From NCBI GenBank assembly GCA_015501605.1, contig JADNRZ010000014.1, positions 124,001 through 188,000 on the forward strand: a DNA stretch of 64,000 bases, written 5' to 3'. Both the position numbers and the translations under genes were made by a program. The notes beneath the pieces are model-generated. The model saw nothing but the letters and a program-made list of their open reading frames with translations, was not told the origin of the DNA and did no database searches. This document shows, piece by piece, positions 35,568-62,094 of the stretch. Each line of letters starts with the position of its first letter. Position 1 is the stretch's first letter. This DNA comes from Panaeolus papilionaceus. Lineage: Eukaryota > Basidiomycota > Agaricomycetes > Agaricales.

Positions 35568-35867
35568 TCGCTAAATCTGCCGCAACGCTCCATTGACTAG
35601 CATTAACCACTGCACCTTTGTTTTTATTTCATGGACGAGTCTTCTTTTCTGTGTTGACCCCCCATTACGTATCAGAGCACTAACATGTCATTCACGGTTT
35701 ACCCCCACATTGTGCCAATCATAACGACGAGGATTGCATAACGAAATTCAACAATGCATTCTCTTAAGTTGTCAATTCACCTTGGCCCAACCAGGCGTAA
35801 TTTCGTTGTTATCATCCTCCCCACCCATACGACCAGACACCATCTTCCTCCACTCCGCCCTGTACCC

Positions 35868-38800
35868 TTAATTTAAACAGTCCTCCGTATACCGTCCGAC
35901 ATGCGAGTCCCTATGGAAGTTTTGTTTGTTCAGGTCCACAAAGTCAACCCACACAGAAGGTCCCAAACGGAGAGTTCCTGTGGCAACAGGCTCTCGTCTG
36001 ACCTCAGGTTCAAGAGTTCCGTTGCAAAAATCCGGTGCGAGACCCGGGCCATGAGATATCGGCGGAAAAGGGTCCTCGTAGATTTTAACCGAAACTTCGA
36101 AACCAGGCTTAAAGAATGATGGTGGATTGTCGTTGTCGAAAGGTTGCATTGCACGCTCGTAGAGGTCCATGTAGAGCAGCAACGACCCGTTTGCCAACTG
36201 CTCTTCCGGTAGCGCATTGTTGAGGTCCAGCGATATCTTTTCTGCAGTCAGCTGGGCATTTGGCGCTTTGAGTAGCATGTGGTCGATGTGGGGGTCCTGA
36301 GATGTTCCATAAAGATAAAATGGACAATATGGATGCGGGTAATCAGGATCCCTCCAGCGCGAAAGCAGTGACCTTTGCTTGATGATTTCCACCTCAACTA
36401 AGCAACAGCATGTCAGATTTGTGCCTCTAATTTGGACAGGGTTAAGTATGCTGTCTCGTCGAAAGGTCTGACTAAGACGTTTACCTGTGGTAAATGTATC
36501 CCGTTAGTTGCTTTGACTCCATGATGTTTTCCAAAGTTTGCTTCTCCACGAAAAATGTGAACACTTCCTCGGGGAACAACATTTTGGCATTCAGATAAAG
36601 ATTCCATGCGTTGTTAGAGTTGATCGAAGGTTTGACCCTGAGGATTAGCTGTTGTCGTCCGTTCGCTTTGTAGAATAGAGGGCAATAGACGAGGTAGACT
36701 GGCTCGGTTCCATGCAAGATAAACATGTGTCCCTGCGGGGTGATTGAATTTCGAGCTACAACTTGCTGATTATTTTTTTTCGTTTTGTAAACCACAACAG
36801 TACATAACGAGCGGAAAACATACCTTCATTTCCTGTTCCAAGGTTTGGCGGAATATTTCAGTGACCTGCCCAGTTAAGTCTGCGGCTGCCTGGAAGGGTG
36901 ACATGACGACGTTTCTGAGCACAAATAAGTCTTGGGACGAGTCAATTTCGAGACCCAAACGCTTCTTGAACGAGGCCAGGCATCGGCCATACTCCTTATG
37001 CGAAAACACAGTAGAGGTGATAAAGATGGGTATATCATGGGGCCGTTTACCCACACCAGTGACGGAAAGCCTGTCAAAGATGCACTTGTTCAAGTAATTT
37101 GCCTCTTCCACGTCGGTGTTGAGTGTAAAATCCTGGCCATTGTCACCTCCAAGGCGGAAGCTGCATGCAAAGGTGTTTATGTTCAGGTCGGATCCTAAAG
37201 CCAGTAACTCGTCCAGCGCGTTTGGATCGGCGTCCTCGATGATGTCTTTGTTGCTTCGTCCTAATATTTTCTGGCGGATGAAAAGTTTCTCTTTTTCTAC
37301 CTCTTTTTGATCTGGTTCGGATAGGAGCTTGTTTAGTGGAACAACGATGTATGGGGTAGTTGCATCGGATATAGTGGCCCAATGAGCTGATATCTGGCGG
37401 AGTTTCGGCGTAAGTTCATTCATCACTACACCAAATTAAGAGCATTTACTCGAGCGCAACTAAATCGGACTTCGCCCAGCAAGCTTCCGTGACCGAGTTT
37501 GTGCAGTCCGACGACTGAATGATGAAGATACACGGCTGCCGCTGCTGCTCCTGGTTTACTGTGGTTAAAGGGTGAATAAGTTGTGCGAGGGGAAGCATCG
37601 CAATTTTCATACCTTCCCTCGACGCCGTATACGCCAATACTCTCCCCATTCTGGCCTTGGTTGATATAAGGAGCTGTCCAGGTGAGCAGATATCGCAAAC
37701 GACCATCTTTATAGCACTACAGAATAAAACCTCAATTTCCTTCAACGCCACGAAGAAGGGGGACTCAAACCAATCCACCCGCAGGATAGGGGCAGTAACC
37801 GCTTTTGTGGGGATCAATGGTGATAGAGTCGGCCTGTGAAAGTAGCTTGATTTGTTTCAAGGTGTGATTCTTGAGTGAGAGAGAAGGAGCGTAGAGGTGC
37901 GATGGGAACCTCGGATGGAGGGGTAAAGGGGGTGTCTGTGGAGCTTGCCGATGAGGTTCTTCGCGAATCATGGAGGCAAAGTACCCTCCCCAAGCAGCAT
38001 CTGAACACCAAGGACAGTCAGCTTCTTGTCCAAGGATTAGAACAGCAGGAAATTCATGCCAGCATGGATAAGGAACGTCATTCCTTTCTGCTCATATTCC
38101 ATTCGCAGCGCCACAATTTCGTCCAAGGGGTCAACCGCACCTTCTTCAGTAGAGCCAATGATCGCGACTATAGCGTAAATTGCCTGCTGATTTTGGTATC
38201 GCTCCTCAATGAATGACCGTAGAGCTGCTTTATCCATCCTGGCATCTTCATCGACGGGTACATCTACAACGTTTGAAGCGCCAATTCCTGCTAGGGCTAT
38301 AACGCAGGTAAAATTCCCTAAGAAAACGGCAAGTTAGGACTTAATAGCAACTCACCTGCCCCCTTCAGCCAAGAATAATGCTTGGTACTGGTTATTAAAT
38401 ATTGCGTAGGTTTCTCAATTCCCCATCGCTGCTCCACTACATCCTTTCCAGTCGTTTGGATAATGTACGGTCTTACGGAGTCCTCCAGAAATTTAGAGCT
38501 GATGCCAAAGTCCTTGTTCAACCGGTCGGGGATATCAAGGATGTCGACAGACCGCAGATTCAGGAGCTCCCAAGTACTGAGTTCGCTGAACAGGTAGTCT
38601 TCCACGGTACTGCACTTTCGGATCCGAAATCTATCGGAAAGGAAAGACAGCTCCTTTTCGTCCATCATTGCCTCACGAAGGGCGAGAGGGTAGAATTTGA
38701 GATTACGGGCTGTTGGCCCCAGTAAAGCTCCGTCTTATTGAGGTCGGCATAACTGCTTACCTGCCCTGTTGATAAATGTGAATTGTCAGATAAAATGCGA

Positions 38801-52754: not shown

Positions 52755-52835
52755 GGGCGCATGGTGTAGTTGGTTATCACGCTCGCTTAGCATCGTATTT
52801 GCGAGAGGTGTTGGGTTCAATTCCCAATGCGTCCA
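52755..52835 (+). tRNA. tRNA-Ala(AGC) with a 7-nt intron
   Basis: Same tRNA as at 40136-40221: acceptor GGGCGCA/TGCGTCC, anticodon stem CTCGC/GCGAG, loop TTAGCA-T, T arm TTGGG-TTCAATT-CCCAA, discriminator A. The intron is only 7 bases. A T-run (TTGTTTTT) follows immediately. Confidence 0.92.
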
Positions 52836-52869
52836 TTGTTTTTGACTTTTGTCAGTTACACCAAGAAGA

Positions 52870-53104
52870 TTCAGAGTCATGAGCCGGTGATCCTCCTCAT
52901 ACACATATAAGAGTTACGAGTGTGCTACCGTAACGGGAACCAGAAATGAACGCTCGCAGGAGAGCTCGCTTCTCGAAATGAGGAATATCAATATATTAGA
53001 GATTTTACTAACATCATCGGGTTACGAATGTGTTAGGTTGCGGAGGCTTTGGCCGGTCGCGACGAGAAACTCAAATTGTGAGAGAGTCGAGTCGCGACCG
53101 CACG
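52870..53104 (+). repeat. Hairpin-ended repeat, left part, interrupted by the KDZ element
   Basis: This shares TATAAGAGTTACGAGT with the minus strand of 43557-43733 and CGGTCGCGACGAGAAAC with 44033. It ends at the target site ACCGCACG (53097-53104), which is repeated after the inserted element at 61691-61698. The left boundary is uncertain. Confidence 0.5.
53097..53104 (+). repeat. 8-bp target site duplication, left
   Basis: ACCGCACG directly before the left inverted repeat; the identical 8 bases follow the right inverted repeat at 61691-61698. Confidence 0.9.
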
Positions 53105-53463
53105 CACCTGTGGTTACCGTATCAGCCTTGTGATTCTAGGCGTCGGATCACCCGATCACCCCTCTGGAATTGTAGGGAAAATTCCCTTCCAGATAGACTC
53201 TTCAGAAACCCTCCAAAATACGAGGGACTTGGAGAAAAAAAAGTAGATACCTAGGGTAGGGTAGGGGTAGGGGTATACCGGCAACCTCCGGGACACCATC
53301 AGGAGGTGTTACCGGTCCGTCGCTCACCATCAATCCCGACCCCACGCTGTCACCGACATCACGCGCTTCGTCAGCGCCATCAAACATGTTGAGCTCGTCG
53401 TTGCGCACAATGAGCTCGAGTATTTCACTCAATATTCACTCAAAAAATACAGAAAAAATTGTA
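53105..53463 (+). repeat. Left terminal inverted repeat of the KDZ element
   Basis: About 359 bp, matching the reverse complement of 61332-61690 without any length difference (position pairs all sum to 114795). The similarity continues inward with a few mismatches through an A/T-rich tract (TTAATTAATT). Confidence 0.9.
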
Positions 53464-53521
53464 GATTAATTAATTTAATTAAATAAACATATTTAAATAT
53501 AATAAACGATTAAAGAGCACT

Positions 53522-56500
53522 TCAATGACTATCAAGAGACATTTCCATCAAAAGAAAGGCCTCCTCCTCTGCTTGTTGTTCCTGTTCCTCCTCCTCTTGT
53601 TCAGCTGCCTCTTCTGATGATTCCGCAACGGATCCGCGTGTGGTGAGAGATATGGGGGAAGAAGGCACCGTGGTGGGGATTTGGGAACCCTCAATGCTAA
53701 CACCTTCATCCAGGGTTCCCGAGAATCCCGGGAGCTTGAGCAGGCCCTTCATGCGCGTGATGTGAACGTCATTCTTCAGTTTGAGAGAGATAAGGCGTAG
53801 GTGGATTTGGTGGGCAAGAAGGGGTTGTGTTTCAGAGAGGGTGTCGACGTGGTGAGCGAGGAAAGCCTCCTCGTCGCGAATGTAGGTGGTAAGTCGGCGG
53901 ATTTCAATGTTGAGCCTCTTGATTTCGTCGCGCGCACCCTTGATCTTGAAGAACTGGTCCACAAGGGTTCGCGACCCTGCCTTTGCCCAGTCTCGCTGAC
54001 GAACGTCCTCGCGCGTGTCGGAAAGCAAGTCAAAGTCTGCGAGCTGGGTGTACTGCACGACTTGATCCCACGTGAGCACACCCCGCCCAACAGACTTTGC
54101 TGCAGCGTTGTAGTCCTCCACGGCGCTACGAATGGCTTGAGAACGGGCCTTGAGCGCTTTCCCAATTTGCTGTCGCATTTTGTAGCCTGTAGCGTTGTAA
54201 AACAATAGGAAAGATCAGATAAAAAGAAAAAATACTCACCAGTTTGCGACATGTTCATTTTCGTCAACTCAAATAACCGCGCCACAACTAGACCCTCCAA
54301 ACGGTCGACGGCAGCGCGATACCGGCGTAGATACACCAGCTGCTGCGTCTCCTCCCACTCCTTGTCACCGGGTATCCAGCGATCTTCGGGCTTGATGTCC
54401 AGCTTGACCTCTAATCCATGAATCATATCCATCTCGCGCCGATGACGTTCTTGAAGCTGTCGGCGTTTGGTTTCATTGCGGCGGGTTTCGTCAGGTGTGG
54501 TGTTGATGGTGGATGGGGTCAGTGAAATCCATTGGGATTCAGCGGCCGTCAGCAGGACTCTAGGAGGATATATTCAATGTAATATATCAATAGGTGGATA
54601 CAAGATAGACGTACTGGGTCTTATAGAAGCTCTGCAGCTTCTGATAATACTCCATCTTAAGGGTCTCCTCTTCAGGCTCGCGCGAGAGATTTGTGAGGTA
54701 ATTACTTTCCTCTGTTAGCCACCGTTGAAATAGAGCCGTGTCCTTGCCGAGGCCTTGTTGGTGCATTTGCTGGAAGAGAGCGCCTTCACGAGCGATGATG
54801 TCGAGGGCTCGTTTGTAACTATTTACAATGAATGAACCTGAATAAAATATATGTGGTCAGCGGCAAATGATAAAGGTATAGCAGTATGGTACTTAATGAA
54901 AGGTATGTATCTTCTGAGTCTGTGTGCTTAACAAATCCGTTGATAGTCTGGCGGCGATGGAAAATACTTGAGGAGCGCGTTGATGGTGCGAGGCCGTTTG
55001 AAAGCGAGAAATAAGGTTCGCATCCCTCAAAGGGATCGAGGCCTGTACCGTCGATGTACGCTGCGAGGTTCTTCAGTTGGCATTTGCGGTTGTGGGCATG
55101 GCCGTGGAAGTTGCCAACGAGGAAACGTGTGCGCAGTTCTTCTGCCCGTGGTCCTAAAGCGCTATTCTTCAGCGTCGTCCCGAACTTGCAACCAATGTCG
55201 TAGCCTATAGCGAGGTCGCTGCCGAAGGCATCCAGAAGGCGTTCAACGGCGGCGAGGGGGTATTTGGATCTAGACGTGAGGGAGGTGATGACGGTGAAGA
55301 GGAAGAGGTAGATGTGGGAATTTACTCACTGTTCTCCGCTTCTCACCATGTCCATCACCAGCAGGACATGGGAATGGCGGCATAGGACGAGGAATATACC
55401 TGTCTCATCAAATATTCCCCACATCCTCGCTGTCTTCTCGTTTGCCATGTTCTTCCAGCGGTCATCACATCCATTGGGATCTGTCTGTTAATTCTGGTAA
55501 GTAATGGTTATTATGATAATGAAAATGTGCTTACCACTTCTGTTTTCTGGGGAATGAGAGCCACAGAACCCTTACCCCACCTGTCAACCTCTTCCCGTGA
55601 GAGGTAATAGTCACCTCGGACAACGCGTGGGTCGTGGCGTTCGTGATTCTCACCCAGCTCTCTTCCTCCCTCCACCTCCTCTGTTTTGTCTCGTCGTGCC
55701 AGTCTCTTCAACGAATCGTTTCCGTCCATGGTCAGTAACATGGAGAACTTCAAGTCTGGTTCTCCTTGAAGTTTGTAAGTGCACGGCACACATGCGTGTC
55801 TCAGTCTCCACCCTTTCTGGTCTCTGCCTAATGCAGTGTTGATCCTCTCATCAACAATGCCCAATATATCAAGGTAAGTGTCATATGCAACCGAGAATTG
55901 CTTACTGATGTATGATTGGTAGGGGCTACGATGCAAGTCGCACAGCGTCCTTGTGAATGCCTGGATTGAGAGACGAGGACAACGAAGGGATGCTGCGCGA
56001 AAGAGCTCCAAAGTCCGGATTGTGAAACCAACAGTCGGCGCTTCTGGCGCACATGGTATCATTCCGTGACGAACAAATGAGGCTGCTAGGGATGGCAAGT
56101 CGGTGTACAAGGGTACGGCCACTCGGGAAACACCTGGTGTCGAGGTAAGTTCACATTTATTCCATCCCAAGTCCCAACATACCATAGGTATCAATTCTTC
56201 GGACAGGGAAATCCCCTTCCCTTTCAGCCTGGTATTCTGGATATTCCGGTGGGTTCTCGTTTACAAACGTTTTATCTCCCTGTCGGTGACTCCACACTAG
56301 ATACGCCTCCAGCATTTCAGGCATCTGGGAGGCAAACGCCAGAACCCGCTTTTCAATTGCATCGCGACGCGTTCGCGTGTCCCGCTTTCTTCGTTTTCTA
56401 TTTTTAATATGATTATCAGTAAATGTTTTAATATGAATGAGGCTCAAGTAGCTTACCTAGGTGCATGATCTTGCAATAGGGACTCAACAATCTCCTCAAA

Positions 56501-56833
56501 CTCGCCTCCGTGGTTGCTGATATCCAAGACCTCCCGTCCCTCCATTACAGCCAACAGCCTTGCCTGTACCTCGCCGTTTGTTTGCGCGTCCCCCATATCC
56601 ACGTCCATCCAGCCACCTACATCGTCATCGTTGTCGCCCAGCTCGTCACTGTGATCCATATTCAAACCCATGCGACTGAGGAACGCCTTTCTTCGTCGCT
56701 CGCGCATCTCCCTGTGCTGCTTTCGTGCACTCAACTGATAATCTCCAAGCTGTTTTCGAGACAATGCCTTCCCTGAATGTGCCTTTCCGTTGATGTCAGT
56801 GCCCATGATTCGGGCGACCTTTATGGTTGGCAT
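53522..56833 (-). CDS. KDZ-type transposase
   Basis: Transposase of the Kyakuja-Dileera-Zisupton class, with an RNase H fold. Eight exons: 56833-56457, 56397-56183, 56133-55535, 55484-55330, 55269-54893, 54837-54615, 54559-54240 and 54186-53522. Start MPTIKVARIMGTDINGKAHS. Recognised segments: LPSLAASFVRHGMIPCAPEA, ISKQFSVAYDTYLDI, ERINTALGRD, ACVPCTYKLQGEPDLKFSML, LTMDGNDSLKRLARR (the family's MDGN-SLKR block), RGDYYLSREEVDRW, DDRWKNMANEKTARMWGIFD, ETGIFLVLCRHSHVLLVMDM, AIGYDIGCKF, and GNFHGHAHNRKCQL. The acidic candidates for catalysis are the Asp residues of MDGN, GIFDETG and GYDIGC; I cannot assign the exact triad. The C-terminal 400 residues are coiled and charged, ending in a Glu/Gln-rich tract. 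No broken frame is seen, so the gene may be active. Confidence 0.88.
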
Positions 56834-58049
56834 GTTGTATGTTTTAGATGTGACAGTCGTCAAACCAGGCCACGGGGTAGTAAGAATATGGTATGTTTCG
56901 TGTCTAAACTTGATGTTTTTCTTGCTTGAATTCATCACGTGAAACAGGTTAAACCATACCCCTATCTGCCCTATCTCCTCAAAAACATACTTCGGTGAGT
57001 ACATACAGCACATATGAGTAACTTTTGGATATAATGACATATCGGACATTTCAAGGAACCATTGTCTGCTACTTACAACGTGCCAGATACGTTCGAATGG
57101 CTTCGTTTGCATTCACTCAAGGCTGAACATATTCTCAAGGTCAGTAAGCCCTCCCTTTGCTTGCTTTACAATGCCACACGACACCTAATGTACCATGTTT
57201 GCTTCGGTAGGGTGTAATGGCAGTATATACACCATATTCCTCGTCACCGGGCCTTGCAGGCTTTTCGCCCGCGCCAGAATTAGCATAGATGTAATGTTAG
57301 AGCACCAGGCTGGTTACCCTATGTACATTCAGCGTTTTATATAGCATAATTTCGATATTTCTATATTTTAAGATCATGTGTCTATCGATTGAGAATGTTT
57401 TTGACGAAATCCGAAGAGATATTGGTGCCCCACATTGGGCGAACAGGAAAGTGGTCGAAATACTCGTTAGGCGCCCTATTGATGTATTGATCATTTCGAG
57501 AGCATCGAACGTTCACAACATCAAAAACCAGCACTTATTCTTTTATATCTTCATCAATTCTTACTCAAATCTGGAGATGCTACCCTCGTTTTAATCGCGC
57601 GTTTAAGCGCTTTCATATGCCGTCCTTTATATGGTAAACGAATAAAAACTCGCATTGCAAAATACGTATTAGTGTAAAAACAGTCGATTTTTGGCAAAAT
57701 TCGGAGTCTGATATTTCACTCTTTTGTTTCGGAATTTATGACTAAATACATCTGAGAGTATTATAACGACTTTAAAATATGAATCCGATGCATCTACCAT
57801 CCACTGTGAACATGCCGAGAAAAAACATAAATAAATCTCTGAATTAATACAAACAGTAACTCTGCGTATTTTTATACAGAACAACTTTGATTATTATACA
57901 ATGTGAGATATATTTCAATTAAAAATACTCGAAAGGCGTCCAAGCTGAAAGAACTAATAGATTTAACACAATGGTACATCACAATGTTCAGACTCATATT
58001 TCCCTACTCGTATGCGTTATGTTTGATTTTTTGACATAATCTAATACTA
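56834..58049. other. A/T-rich spacer inside the KDZ element
   Basis: About 1.2 kb upstream of the transposase. A/T-rich from 57300 on, with a 72-codon plus-strand frame at 57376 that has no known motif. It probably holds the transposase promoter. Confidence 0.4.
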
Positions 58050-58247
58050 TTAACCTATTAAAAGTCTTTGAACACTATCCGATAGTGGTGGACAGTCTAA
58101 TACATGTGCAGCGATATTGTTTTGTCGTACTGCATCCCGGTACTGAGTCCCGGATTTAGTTCCAAATAAGGTAATTCTGCACATTGGACATGAAGTTGTG
58201 TTGTGCTCGCCTTCACACTTTCGAGAGTAACAAATCAATCCAGCCAT
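58050..58247 (-). pseudogene. RING-finger-like fragment
   Basis: A 65-codon frame reads CYSRKCEGEHNTTSCPMCR followed by ITLFG, the look of the second half of a RING domain (Cys/His pairs and final CPMCR). The first half of a RING is not visible upstream. It may be the last exon of a longer gene or a captured fragment. Confidence 0.4.
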
Positions 58248-58327
58248 TTAAAAAGAAGAAAAAAATATGAGAATGATTCCATACATATACTGCAGCTCTA
58301 CATATAAAAATGTAGCAAAAAAATAAA

Positions 58328-59200
58328 TTATAACGCCTCAATTTTGCCCGACATGTACATTTGCCCAAATACCTTCCATGCCTCAGCTTCACTACCTGAT
58401 TTCATCCTTCTGGCTCGAGAATGCGGTCCTGCAGCATTCCATGCTGCTACACTGGCATAATAGCACGCTTATTAGCCACAATAAACAATAGAAAAAGAAA
58501 TTCAAAAGCACTTACTTGCCATGATAAACACCAGGTCTGGCACCTCTAACAACAACATAAAAGGCAGTGTCCTCCTCCACAAATGGCTGGGAATGACAAG
58601 GAGAGATCAGAATAGATGATGAGGGACGAGATCCAGAGCGCTGAGGTGTCGAAGGCGGAGAGAGCGCTGAAAAACTCTGTGCAAGCGATGTGATGTCGCC
58701 ATTACTTCCTTGTTGTACCTGCCTGCGGGCGCATTCAGCTAAATCGGGCTTGCGGGCGACTTTGCTGTTCCAGGCCTGGATTGCATCGTCTACGGTTGCA
58801 AAGCCTAACCATGCGGCACCTGGCACATTATCGGTTGACCGCACAACCTCAGGCCTGTTCACAGCTTTGATAAGTTATTAATAGATTAGCAAAATAACAT
58901 TGTTAACGCACCAGCTATGAAAAATGCCAACCTTGCGCCCATTCCAGACACAGTAGGCATCAAAATTCTGACCTGGAGAGCGCTGACCCTGGTTGTGAAT
59001 GAATTTGGTATAGTGGGGAATGGGTGGGGATGGGTTAACGAGCTCAGGGTGTCCCACATCTGATTCGTGATCTGTCGCCGGCTCATCCGAGTCGTCTAAG
59101 ACCACGGTGAATCGGGCTGTGCGTTTGCTCTTCCTAAGTTCTGCTTGCTGTGAGATGAGAAGCCCTGTCAAGGACCGTGTCACTTACCTGGCATACTCAT
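58328..59200 (-). CDS. Transposon-borne protein with two RNase H1 N-terminal (hybrid-binding) -like domains
   Basis: Four exons: 59200-59188 (13 nt), 59143-58912, 58854-58516 and 58451-58328. Start MSMPAELRKSKRTARFTVVL. First domain: FDAYCVWNGRKVGIFHSW, joined by the intron to PEVVRSTDNVPGAAWLGFAT then VDDAIQAW. Second domain: AFYVVVRGARPGVYHG, joined to NVAAWNAAGPHSRARRMK then SEAEAWKVF. Both fit the pattern of the RNase H1 N-terminal domain, which binds RNA-DNA hybrids and double-stranded RNA: an aromatic and Val strand, G-R/A-x-x-G-I/V-Y/F, a conserved Trp, and a later A-W/F helix. No RNase H catalytic domain follows. The linker is Ser/Pro-rich. Intron phases match across all three junctions. 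Role in transposition is unknown; binding of hybrids or of the element's ends is speculation. Confidence 0.7.
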
Positions 59201-59418
59201 TATCAGTGTTAGTCAATGAGAAATGATTGATCGTTGAATTGCCTTATCGGTGAAATTGAACATCATCACGTGCTTGACACGACCCTGTGACTTTCGTGGT
59301 GTGTACGCGTTGTGTTGAGAATTAAACAAACTCTGTTGATTTGGTATTCGCTACAATGGTCGGGTATGTCTACTTTCTCTATCTTCCTCTAACCCCACGA
59401 CTCATTGCCCTATTCACC

Positions 59419-61241
59419 ATGGACTTGAGTCGAATTTTGAACAATCAAGCCACCCCCGTTATCTCAAACCCCACGGCACCTGCGGAAGGACATGTTGACA
59501 GCTCCCACACGCTGTCAAACGTTGACAGGTCTTCGGCTCCACTCCGAGGCCGGGAACCCTTAGCTCCCATCTCCATCAACACAACCTCCCACCTTCCCTC
59601 ACCAGTTCCTTCCTCTCCACCACCTGTTCCCTCGTCTCCCCCTCCTCAAACTAGCTCATGGTCTGAACGCAACCCCTCGTATCCAACACAACCCAAAGTT
59701 TCTCGCCCGGCGCCCAAGACCACCGCTGCAGGCAAGGCAGCAAAAAAACAACGCAAAGAAGAAAACCGTGCGAAGAAGGCATTGTTCGATGAAGCCGTGC
59801 AGGTTCTCATTGAACAACTCGAAGACGATATTCAGGAACTCGCCGAGCAGTTCAACAAGCCTGTTGCCGACATCAAGGCTATTGTCCTCAGCACAGCCAG
59901 CAAGCCAAAACGCAAACTAAGCGATGCCAACGTTTTGCTGATGCTAGAGGCTCATCTAGCTAACATCAGTAAGTGTCAACTCATATATTGTTTTTATTTT
60001 ATTTTTTTAATGATTTGTGCTAATATAGATAACGAGCCTGCTCAGCACGCGCTCAAGCAGCGCCTCCCCCGCATCCGTGTTGATCTTGCCAACAAAAAGT
60101 ACTCCACCGCCGAGATCAAAGCGGCGCACAAGTTCGCGGAGGAGCACAAAAAGTTCAAGGCCCAGGGAATACGGTCGAGCGAGAAGGCGGCGCAAACAGA
60201 CGCGCTGCACACCATGAACGACGTTAAGACTCAGGTGAGTAAGATCTACATCGTTCATGGCCATTACTTACATCTTTGTCCACTTGTTAGCTCACCGACC
60301 TGTTCTGGCGCTGCGGCATTGTGTCGTTGCTTCTCCTGAGCAGGTCCAGTGTCATGCAGACGTTCACGCCGGTCCTATTCGAGGTTGTTGGGTCTGGAGG
60401 GTTCTTCAAAGCCTGCCTGGGTAAGGAGGGCACGGAGTCCGTCCTCCTTTATGACCAGTTCAACTGCATTCGTGACATTGGTAAGTTTCATTGTTCCCTC
60501 TGACTACATGAATACTAGCTAATCATACCTACCATGAAACCTCTCAGCACTCCCCCCGCTCATTGCTACTAGTACCAAGAAGACTAAGAAGTCTACAGTG
60601 AAGCAGAAACAGAAGGAGGTGGTGCAACTTATCACCAAGCTTCTGGGTGAGTGTCCATCCCTGTACTATTATTAGAATGATGCTAACTACTACATGAAGC
60701 CGAAGCGACAAATCAGGCGTGTACTCAAATGAACTACACGTCCTACGACAAGTCCATCCGCTATCAACATCACGTCGAAATCGTTGGCTGGCCCCCTGCC
60801 GTCCCTTTCAAACGCCCTAGCACCATCACGAATGGCACCCACCTCAAGCTCCTTGTGGATGCGATCGCCGACGAGACGCTCCATTTCGCTCCCGTCTCGG
60901 CTCCGGACCTTGTGGCCCTGACGTCGAAATTCTCATCGACTATGAGCGCTGGCAAGGGTAAACGGAAACGGACCGAGAACGACGACGACGACGACGAGGA
61001 GGAAGATGAGAACAACGATGAGGAGGAGGATGAGGAAGACGAGGACAAAGACGACGATGAGGAGGAAGAGGAGGACAAAGATGAAGAGGAGGAGGAGGAG
61101 GAGGAGGACAGGATCAACGATGACGTGGATGTGCACGAGGGTGATAACGAGAGGGGTCGTCCGAACAAGAGGCGCCGTGTTTCGTCACAGTCTCAGGCCC
61201 GTAGTCGCTCCGTCCTCACCAACACTGATACTGAGGATTAA
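59419..61241 (+). CDS. KDZ-element cargo protein with VGWP motif and acidic C-terminus
   Basis: Five exons: 59419-59968, 60029-60234, 60291-60480, 60548-60646 and 60700-61241. Start MDLSRILNNQATPVISN; an upstream ATG at 59356 is possible. The N-terminus is Pro/Ser-rich (PSPVPSSPPPVPSSPPP), then a Lys-rich helix (AGKAAKKQRKEENRAKKALF), LTDLFWRCGIVSLLLLSRSS, a basic patch STKKTKKSTVKQKQKE and the block MNYTSYDKSIRYQHHVEIVG, WPPAVPFKRPSTI. I know the pattern 'Y-x-V-E-L-V-G-W-P ... P-S-x-I' from many agaricomycete predicted proteins of unknown function. A long run of Asp and Glu follows, then a nuclear-localisation-like RPNKRRRV. It is probably a nuclear protein; the acidic run is reminiscent of histone chaperones but that is not a homology claim. 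Confidence 0.7.
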
Positions 61242-61331
61242 TATATTTAGTTTCAATGTTTTTATCATTATTTTAAATGTTAACATGTATTAATCCCTCT
61301 AAATGTTTTTATTTAATCAAATTAATTAATA

Positions 61332-61690
61332 TACAATTTTTTCTGTATTTTTTGAGTGAATATTGAGTGAAATACTCGAGCTCATTGTGCGCAACGACGA
61401 GCTCAACATGTTTGATGGCGCTGACGAAGCGCGTGATGTCGGTGACAGCGTGGGGTCGGGATTGATGGTGAGCGACGGACCGGTAACACCTCCTGATGGT
61501 GTCCCGGAGGTTGCCGGTATACCCCTACCCCTACCCTACCCTAGGTATCTACTTTTTTTTCTCCAAGTCCCTCGTATTTTGGAGGGTTTCTGAAGAGTCT
61601 ATCTGGAAGGGAATTTTCCCTACAATTCCAGAGGGGTGATCGGGTGATCCGACGCCTAGAATCACAAGGCTGATACGGTAACCACAGGTG
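61332..61690 (-). repeat. Right terminal inverted repeat of the KDZ element
   Basis: Reverse complement of 53105-53463. It ends GGTAACCACAGGTG at 61690, immediately before the target duplication. Confidence 0.9.
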
Positions 61691-61698
61691 ACCGCACG
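61691..61698 (+). repeat. 8-bp target site duplication, right
   Basis: ACCGCACG, identical to 53097-53104. Confidence 0.9.
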
Positions 61699-62094
61699 AG
61701 ACGACTACCAAGGGGTAGGTCGAATCGAGGGTTCCCAGAGACCTGACACGTGAAACTCACGCGAAAGAGACACCGGAAGGTCGAGGAAGAACCTCAGACC
61801 TCAGTGCGAAGGCGGGAACAACGCGCCAAAACCTGAGCGCTGGGGGCAAACGTTGGACTGTCAGAGCCAATCCAACGAGCCAATGCCAACGCTAGAGAAG
61901 GGAGTAGGTGGGAGGGACGCAAAAAACGAGTCGAGAGTGTGAACGAGCACGAGTAAGCTAACACCACTGCAGGATAGTGGCAGTGGTAAAAGATGAAGAG
62001 AGAAAAACTCGCGAGCCCATCGATAAAGATGAGAGGCTCGACGAGAAAGGATATATTATCATTAAGCTAAATACAGGAGAGGTTGAGTGGTTCC
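61699..62094 (+). repeat. Hairpin-ended repeat, middle part between two insertions
   Basis: This contains ACCTGAGCGCTGGGGGCAA, GAGCCAATGCCAACGCTAG, GAAGGGAGTAGGTGGGAGGG, CGCGAGCCCATCGATAAAG and AGGCTCGACGAGA, matching 43140-43500 in the same order. It ends at GTGGTTCC (62087-62094), the left target duplication of the next insertion. Confidence 0.65.

What the first reader, a model, noticed from the sequence alone, without database searches (positions are those of the whole stretch)
53097..61698. Complete, probably recent KDZ transposon with perfect long inverted repeats and 8-bp duplication
The sequence shows about 359-bp inverted repeats with no observed differences, ending CACCTGTGGTTACC, and identical flanking ACCGCACG. 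The transposase frame joins across eight exons without a break. KDZ transposases are known from fungal genomes (Iyer and colleagues), but a whole element with defined ends, target duplication and three genes is a useful reference copy. That it is young or active is inference from intact repeats and frames.
Basis: partly seen in the sequence, partly recalled or inferred. Interest (0 to 1): 0.8.

Follow-up and report, generated by a model that had tools for sequence, protein, structure and literature searches.

The report
Young three-gene KDZ mushroom transposon
This is a complete, recently moved jumping gene of the KDZ type in a mushroom genome; it belongs to a group of such elements that also carry two conserved extra genes, one of them built from the RNA:DNA-hybrid-binding piece of the enzyme RNase H1.

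Summary
Window 53105-61690 (8,586 bp) is a KDZ DNA transposon with 359-bp perfect inverted ends and an 8-bp duplication, ACCGCACG. The genome (Panaeolus papilionaceus, by protein names) holds a second copy 14.9 kb away, inverted, with its own duplication (CGTTCTCA), differing by one base of C-run length. A related repeat on contig C15 carries the empty site with a single ACCGCACG. The element is young; present activity is not shown.

Complete KDZ elements with long ends and 8-bp duplications are already in print. What I did not find in print is this cargo. Four diverged groups here share three genes in one order: KDZ transposase, a protein with two RNase H1-type hybrid-binding domains, and a third protein. 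All 8 third-gene loci found lie inside such elements. Between two copies all three genes show dN/dS well below 1. The 10 hybrid-binding domains read share intron position and phase with the host RNase H1 gene, which points to exon capture. A 10.7-kb insert in a Pleurotus Helitron, described as captured viral genes, may be the same kind of element; not tested.

The parts
53097..53104 (.). left target site duplication ACCGCACG
   Evidence: identical to 61691-61698; single copy in a paralogous empty site on C15
53105..53463 (+). left terminal inverted repeat (359 bp perfect; 99% to 53495)
   Evidence: identical in copy 2, 85-90% identical in the C16 and C67 copies
53522..56833 (-). gene 1, KDZ transposase, 976 aa; exons 56457-56833, 56183-56397, 55535-56133, 55330-55484, 54893-55269, 54615-54837, 54240-54559, 53522-54186
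   Evidence: splicing; Pfam KDZ PF18758 residues 327-566, E 8.6e-74; D334, D473, E533 kept in 8 of 9 further copies compared, C67 having N for D473
58328..59194 (-). gene 2, 233 aa, two RNase H1-type hybrid-binding domains (PF01693); exons 59188-59194, 58912-59143, 58516-58854, 58328-58451
   Evidence: E 1e-13, two stretches; the junctions inside both domains agree with GenBank models P0007 and P0008, whose N-termini differ from mine and P0007 has one more splice between the domains; RNase H1 structures match by sequence
59419..61241 (+). gene 3, 528 aa, acidic-tailed protein of unknown role; exons 59419-59968, 60029-60234, 60291-60480, 60548-60646, 60700-61241
   Evidence: weak GTF2I-like match at residues about 338-391, inconclusive
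61332..61690 (-). right terminal inverted repeat (359 bp perfect; 99% from 61300)
61691..61698 (.). right target site duplication ACCGCACG

Best explanation
Window 53105-61690 is a complete, probably autonomous KDZ cut-and-paste DNA transposon. Its DDE-type transposase recognises the long inverted ends, excises the element and inserts it at a staggered cut that becomes an 8-bp duplication (shown: ends, duplication, paralogous empty site, open spliced frame, conserved D, D and E; inferred: the enzyme steps, from what is known of KDZ/Zisupton elements). The near-identical inverted copy 14.9 kb away most likely arose by a short-range jump from a replicated donor into a nearby site (inferred). The element belongs to a sub-lineage with a fixed three-gene set. 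Gene 2 most likely arose by capture and tandem duplication of the hybrid-binding exon of an RNase H1 gene (supported by shared introns), and its product most likely binds RNA:DNA hybrids or double-stranded RNA and so helps the element's expression or its escape from silencing (inferred, about 0.35). Gene 3 is most likely a DNA- or chromatin-binding partner (inferred, about 0.4).
For: PF18758 E 8.6e-74. 359-bp perfect ends and ACCGCACG on both sides. Second copy 8,587 bp, one 1-base C-run difference, own duplication CGTTCTCA. Four paralogous empty sites, one with a single ACCGCACG. Further bounded copies with exact 8-bp duplications on C67, C48, C17 and C71, 7 of 8 bases on C16. Genes 1, 2 and 3 in the same order and orientation in the C6, C16, C48, C14, C17 and C71 elements. 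8 of 8 gene-3 loci found lie in such elements (with 31 and 70). C6 against C16 dN/dS: gene 1 0.114 (bootstrap 0.086-0.144), gene 2 0.261 (0.179-0.429), gene 3 0.185 (0.116-0.269). All 10 transposon hybrid-binding domains read, and the host RNase H1 gene, have a phase-2 intron at the same place (6 plus host, by script; 4, by eye).
Against: No expression or mobility data. The C16 copy has a stop at codon 682 of the transposase frame, and the C67 copy has lost most of genes 2 and 3 and has N for D473, so some copies are decaying. dN/dS rests on one pair of copies, one of them with a broken transposase frame. A profile search for PF01693 over the genome found only the host RNase H1 gene, I think because introns split the transposon domains. 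Only the second domain of C14 gene 2 reaches the profile cut-off; the first domain there and the domains of C17 and C71 rest on alignment and motif. The host gene was called RNase H1 from its PF01693 match and a partial RNase_H match below cut-off in one exon (E 0.0044). The CxC cysteine cluster often found in KDZ transposases is below cut-off here. Roles of genes 2 and 3 are not tested.
Confidence: 0.88

Rival explanations
1. Ordinary KDZ transposon whose genes 2 and 3 are passengers with no role in transposition, kept only because they happen to lie between the ends.
For: C67 lost most of both and still has an 8-bp duplication and recognisable ends, though it may have lost them after inserting; [quoted passage not shown]
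Against: Both genes recur in four diverged groups in the same order; dN/dS 0.26 and 0.19, highest of 200 bootstraps 0.465 and 0.421.
Confidence: 0.2
2. The two near-identical copies on C6 reflect an inverted segmental duplication or an assembly error, not transposition.
For: They lie only 14.9 kb apart, inverted, and differ by one base of C-run length.
Against: Identity stops at the element's ends; each copy has its own 8-bp duplication; flanks of copy 2 have no second match in the genome.
Confidence: 0.04
3. Gene 2 is of viral origin (caulimovirus viroplasmin), as the domain name suggests and as was written for a Pleurotus Helitron gene.
For: The Pfam family is named after caulimovirus gene VI.
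Against: The host RNase H1 gene has the same domain with an intron at the same position and phase as the transposon domains read; RNase H1 chains are the best solved matches. A spliced cellular exon fits better than a virus gene.
Confidence: 0.05

Closest known systems
Cryptococcus KDZ1, KDZ2, KDZ3 (PMC12810828, passages seen)
   Same: KDZ transposase, about 9-11 kb, TIRs of 139-241 bp, 8-bp duplications for KDZ1 and 4-8 bp for KDZ2 and KDZ3; seen to insert in a reporter gene
   Different: Here TIRs are longer (359 bp), no significant CxC1 domain, and genes 2 and 3 are present; the passages name only KDZ and CxC1 domains, and the figure and supplements were not seen
Zisupton / Dileera / Kyakuja elements with TET/JBP (PMC12730594, passages seen)
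   Same: KDZ transposase; Zisupton and a Dileera family make 8-bp duplications
   Different: No TET/JBP gene in this element; the Kyakuja families described there have 7-bp duplications and no TIRs; place within K, D or Z not tested by a tree
Pleurotus ostreatus helpo1.3 long copy, capD-capE-capF (PMC4289320, passages seen)
   Same: 10.7-kb insert, inverted repeats flanking capD and capF, capE with PF01693, capF with an RNase H-like fold, capD with a match to a herpesvirus tegument protein
   Different: Described as viral or captured Helitron genes; sequence not available here, so kinship is untested
Cellular RNase H1, N-terminal hybrid-binding domain (PF01693)
   Same: Domain, intron position and phase
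   Different: Two copies in tandem, no RNase H catalytic domain found in gene 2

Membership tests
KDZ DNA transposon | Kyakuja-Dileera-Zisupton transposase domain | tested here: met
   PF18758 248 bits against cut-off 26.6, profile 1-217 of 217
KDZ DNA transposon | catalytic D, D, E kept | tested here: met
   D334, D473, E533 aligned in 9 further copies; only C67 differs, N for D473. That these are the catalytic residues is recalled, not tested
KDZ DNA transposon | terminal inverted repeats | tested here: met
   359 bp perfect
KDZ DNA transposon | 8-bp target site duplication (Zisupton, Dileera) | tested here: met
   ACCGCACG; paralogous empty sites
KDZ DNA transposon | CxC cysteine cluster ahead of the core (frequent, not universal; recalled) | tested here: inconclusive
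   CxC1 E 0.11 and CxC2 E 0.18, both below cut-off
Kyakuja | 7-bp duplication, no TIRs (as described in PMC12730594) | tested here: not met
   8 bp and long TIRs
Zisupton or Dileera | position in transposase tree | not tested
   no named reference sequences fetched
TET/JBP-bearing KDZ element | TET/JBP dioxygenase gene | tested here: not met
   no such domain in the three proteins; between genes 1 and 2 the longest stop-free frame listed is 97 aa
RNase H1 hybrid-binding domain (PF01693) | profile match above cut-off | tested here: met
   C6 51.7, C16 54.6, C48 41.5 bits with two stretches each, C14 22.0 with one, against 21; C17 and C71 not scanned
GTF2I-like repeat (gene 3) | profile and fold match | tested here: inconclusive
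   Pfam E 0.03-0.13, below cut-off, 3 of 6 members; 3 of 3 solved-structure hits of the C6 core are GTF2I, E 0.25-1.5; Foldseek ranks 2-5, 17 and 24 of 51 are GTF2I at E 0.46 and above, but rank 1 and many others are ribosomal proteins, on a model of mean pLDDT 68; no GTF2I match with C48 or C14 proteins

The most novel reading that the evidence does not exclude
A mushroom-wide KDZ sub-lineage carries a fixed three-gene set in which a captured, duplicated RNase H1 hybrid-binding domain shields or licenses the element through R-loops or double-stranded RNA, and a GTF2I-like protein binds its DNA; the Pleurotus Helitron's 'captured viral genes' are a nested member of it.
Probability: 0.25. Interest if true: 0.65.

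Novelty: new variant of a known kind. Interest (0 to 1): 0.5.

Why it matters
It gives a clean, datable KDZ reference: two almost identical copies with different duplications, a paralogous empty site, and family members at several depths of divergence. More broadly it shows that a KDZ lineage has kept two accessory genes through long divergence, one of them apparently taken from RNase H1. That makes a testable case of a transposon using a hybrid-binding protein, and offers a simpler reading of a 'viral gene' report in Pleurotus. The C14 pair also shows how two such inverted copies can flip the DNA between them.

Tried and rejected
Rejected: segmental duplication for the C6 pair (separate duplications, flanks of copy 2 without a second match). 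Rejected: viral origin of gene 2 (intron sharing with host RNase H1). Not settled: GTF2I kinship of gene 3 (below cut-offs; negative with C48 and C14 proteins). The whole-protein model of gene 3 was poor, mean pLDDT 45.8, and was not used. PF01693 searched over the genome gave 2 matches, both in the host gene on C12, and P0011 as query gave none; I think because introns split the domains, so these searches do not count the transposon copies. The solved-structure search with alignment A2 gave 56 hits; the two alignments shown are acidic low-complexity stretches, the other 54 were not viewed. Two other KDZ loci (C17:6000-15500 and C30:31000-40999) showed only low-complexity matches to genes 2 and 3, but the stretches may not cover whole elements. 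Literature: KDZ, transposon, target site duplication, terminal inverted repeats 5 papers; KDZ, transposase, Basidiomycota, viroplasmin, at least two terms, 20 of 145 listed; Zisupton and related, 20 of 995 listed; KDZ with Cauli_VI 0 papers; viroplasmin, fungi, transposon 8 papers; GTF2I, fungi, transposon 4 papers, none opened; KDZ and accessory genes, at least four of five terms, 15 papers; hybrid binding domain, transposon, fungi, RNase H1, at least three terms, 10 of 20 listed; Panaeolus/KDZ/transposable elements, at least two terms, 10 of 23 listed. Four papers were seen, each in passages only. Iyer et al. 2014 is not held, so I cannot say that it does not mention this cargo.

Full report
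What is there. The window lies at C6:124001-188000 of a 50.9-Mb assembly in 71 contigs. Proteins of the element are recorded under Panaeolus papilionaceus; for P0002 and P0007 the contig length given, 1,442,516, equals that of C6, and for P0009, 962,734, that of C14. P0001 and P0008 fit the C16 copy by sequence, but their contig length, 803,873, is not that of C16, 797,500. The element spans 53105-61690, 8,586 bp. Its ends are perfect inverted repeats for 359 bp and pair at 99% to 391 bp; ACCGCACG stands on both sides.

It is young. A second copy at C6:200552-209138 is inverted, 8,587 bp long, and differs from the first by one C in a run of Cs, which could even be a sequencing error. It has its own duplication, CGTTCTCA, and its flanks have no second match in the genome. 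14,861 bp separate the two. So the same sequence was inserted twice, separately, with no base substitution since. A short-range jump during replication is a usual explanation for such pairs in cut-and-paste elements (recalled; inference here).

Empty sites. The flanks of the window copy belong to another repeat. Five members match the left flank up to the insertion point (C20, C7, C14, C15, C34); four of them also match the right flank from that point, with an overlap of 8 bp (7 bp on C14, where the left match stops one base short; C34 has no listed right match). Aligned to the joined flanks these four carry the octamer once: ACCGCACG on C15, ACCGCCCG on C20, ACTGCACG on C7, ACTGCACT on C14. 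This fixes the boundaries and the size of the duplication independently.

The genes. Gene 1 (minus strand, eight exons, 976 aa) is a KDZ transposase (PF18758, E 8.6e-74). Gene 2 (minus, four exons, 233 aa) has two PF01693 stretches, the hybrid-binding domain of RNase H1 (E 1e-13; RNase H1 chains E 0.00066). Gene 3 (plus, five exons, 528 aa) has four relatives in Mycena species (E 1.8e-18 to 1.2e-4) and no family above cut-off. The splicing is predicted. The junctions inside both domains of gene 2 agree with GenBank models P0007 and P0008, but their N-termini differ from mine and P0007 has one more splice between the domains; P0002 follows my gene 3 up to exon 5 and then leaves it.

A lineage with a fixed gene set. 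Other bounded copies: C16:775837-784477 (86% identical; GTTGGATT and GTCGGATT), C67:1746785-1752648 (internally deleted; GCTACGCC twice), C48:29130-37743 (CCAAAAAT twice); C14:193951-204165 and 216630-226844, 99.9% identical and inverted; C17:663504-676417 (TATAGGTC twice) and C71:265070-276461 (TAATGGGT twice). By DNA alignment they fall into four groups: C6/C16/C67 (75-87% identical over 0.56-1.00 of the query), C48, C14, and C17/C71 (72% over 0.36); between groups at most 0.30 of an element aligns. Genes 1, 2 and 3 are present in the C6, C16, C48, C14, C17 and C71 elements in the same order and orientation, gene 3 of C17 and C71 being recognised by its core alone; C67 keeps gene 1 and only ends of genes 2 and 3. 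Searches with the C6 gene 3 (6 places) and with a C14 gene 3 core (8 places, the same 6 among them) found 8 places in all; 8 of 8 lie inside such elements (with 31 and 70). KDZ domains as such gave 134 matched stretches in the genome (a lower bound), so most KDZ copies were not examined, and I do not know how many carry genes 2 and 3.

Selection. Between C6 and C16, dN/dS is 0.114 for gene 1 (975 codons), 0.261 for gene 2 (233) and 0.185 for gene 3 (525); 200 bootstraps give 2.5-97.5% ranges 0.086-0.144, 0.179-0.429 and 0.116-0.269. Noncoding sites differ by 0.207 (2,550 sites), the inverted ends by 0.074 (718 sites). The cargo has been kept by selection over that span, though one pair of copies is a small base and the C16 transposase frame has a stop at codon 682.

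Origin of gene 2. The host gene on C12 (about 1325.6 kb) has PF01693 split over two exons, and the second of these exons also shows the start of an RNase_H domain, below cut-off (E 0.0044); I take it as RNase H1. An intron cuts its hybrid-binding domain after the second base of the fifth codon past the conserved glycine (GIFDT^). In all six transposon domains tested by script (C6, C48, C14, two each) an intron sits at the same place and phase; the four domains of C17 and C71 show the same, read by eye. Capture of the exon followed by tandem duplication, before these groups parted, is the simplest account. Which RNase H1 gene, and of which species, was the source is open. PF01693 relatives exist in Trametes, Schizophyllum, Mycena and Phanerochaete proteins, by eye with two domains each; whether they lie in KDZ elements could not be tested.

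Gene 3. Its conserved core resembles GTF2I repeats weakly: Pfam E 0.044, 0.031 for the C16 protein, 0.13 for one Mycena protein; 3 of 3 solved-structure hits of the C6 core; Foldseek ranks 2-5, 17 and 24 of 51 on a model of mean pLDDT 68, best GTF2I E 0.46, with a ribosomal protein at rank 1. None passes a cut-off, and the C48 and C14 proteins gave no GTF2I match. I leave it open.

Known and new. KDZ elements with TIRs of 139-241 bp and 8-bp (KDZ1) or 4-8-bp duplications were seen to move in Cryptococcus (PMC12810828, passages). Zisupton and a Dileera family make 8-bp duplications, Kyakuja 7 bp without TIRs (PMC12730594, passages). [quoted passage not shown] (passages). So the element is a KDZ transposon and as such ordinary. 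This particular pair, a hybrid-binding gene and gene 3, was not found in print by the searches listed; Iyer et al. 2014 could not be read. In Pleurotus a 10.7-kb insert in the Helitron helpo1.3 has inverted repeats flanking capD and capF, capE with PF01693 and capF with an RNase H-like fold (PMC4289320, passages). The layout would match gene 3 - gene 2 - gene 1. This is a lead, not a test.

Verdict. Observation confirmed; interpretation supported; youth shown, activity not. Interest is moderate and rests on the cargo and its origin.

Noticed in passing
G000:C14:193951-204165 and 216630-226844 (loci L017-L020): Inverted 99.9% identical KDZ pair whose flanking 8-mers are exchanged (TTTTTCAT and CACGGGGG each appear once beside each copy, in opposite orientation): the mark of a 12.5-kb inversion by recombination between the two copies.
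   Followed up: partly
window 60700-61690: The GenBank model of gene 3 in this copy (P0002) splices from exon 5 into the terminal inverted repeat, unlike P0001, which ends in the acidic tail as mine does; probably a mis-annotation.
   Followed up: partly
window 52907-53104 and 61691-62094: The element sits inside another repeat family with members on C20, C7, C14, C15 and (left part) C34; its nature was not determined.
   Followed up: no
window about 52755-52843: A roughly 90-bp unit here recurs at several places on C6 and C22 and once on C12, 86-93% identical.
   Followed up: no
L033: C30:32957-34659 and 35823-37527: A 1.7-kb inverted repeat, 99.9% identical, close to another KDZ locus.
   Followed up: no
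G000:C14:41080-41176: A fragment 81% identical to a 110-bp outer part of the inverted end with no element attached in the stretches read.
   Followed up: no
G000:C16 and C67 copies (L011, L012): Decay: the C16 transposase frame has a stop at codon 682; C67 has lost most of genes 2 and 3 and has N for D473.
   Followed up: partly
G000:C12:2943854-2946816 (L021): A C14-type transposase at the very end of contig C12, cut off by the contig end.
   Followed up: no
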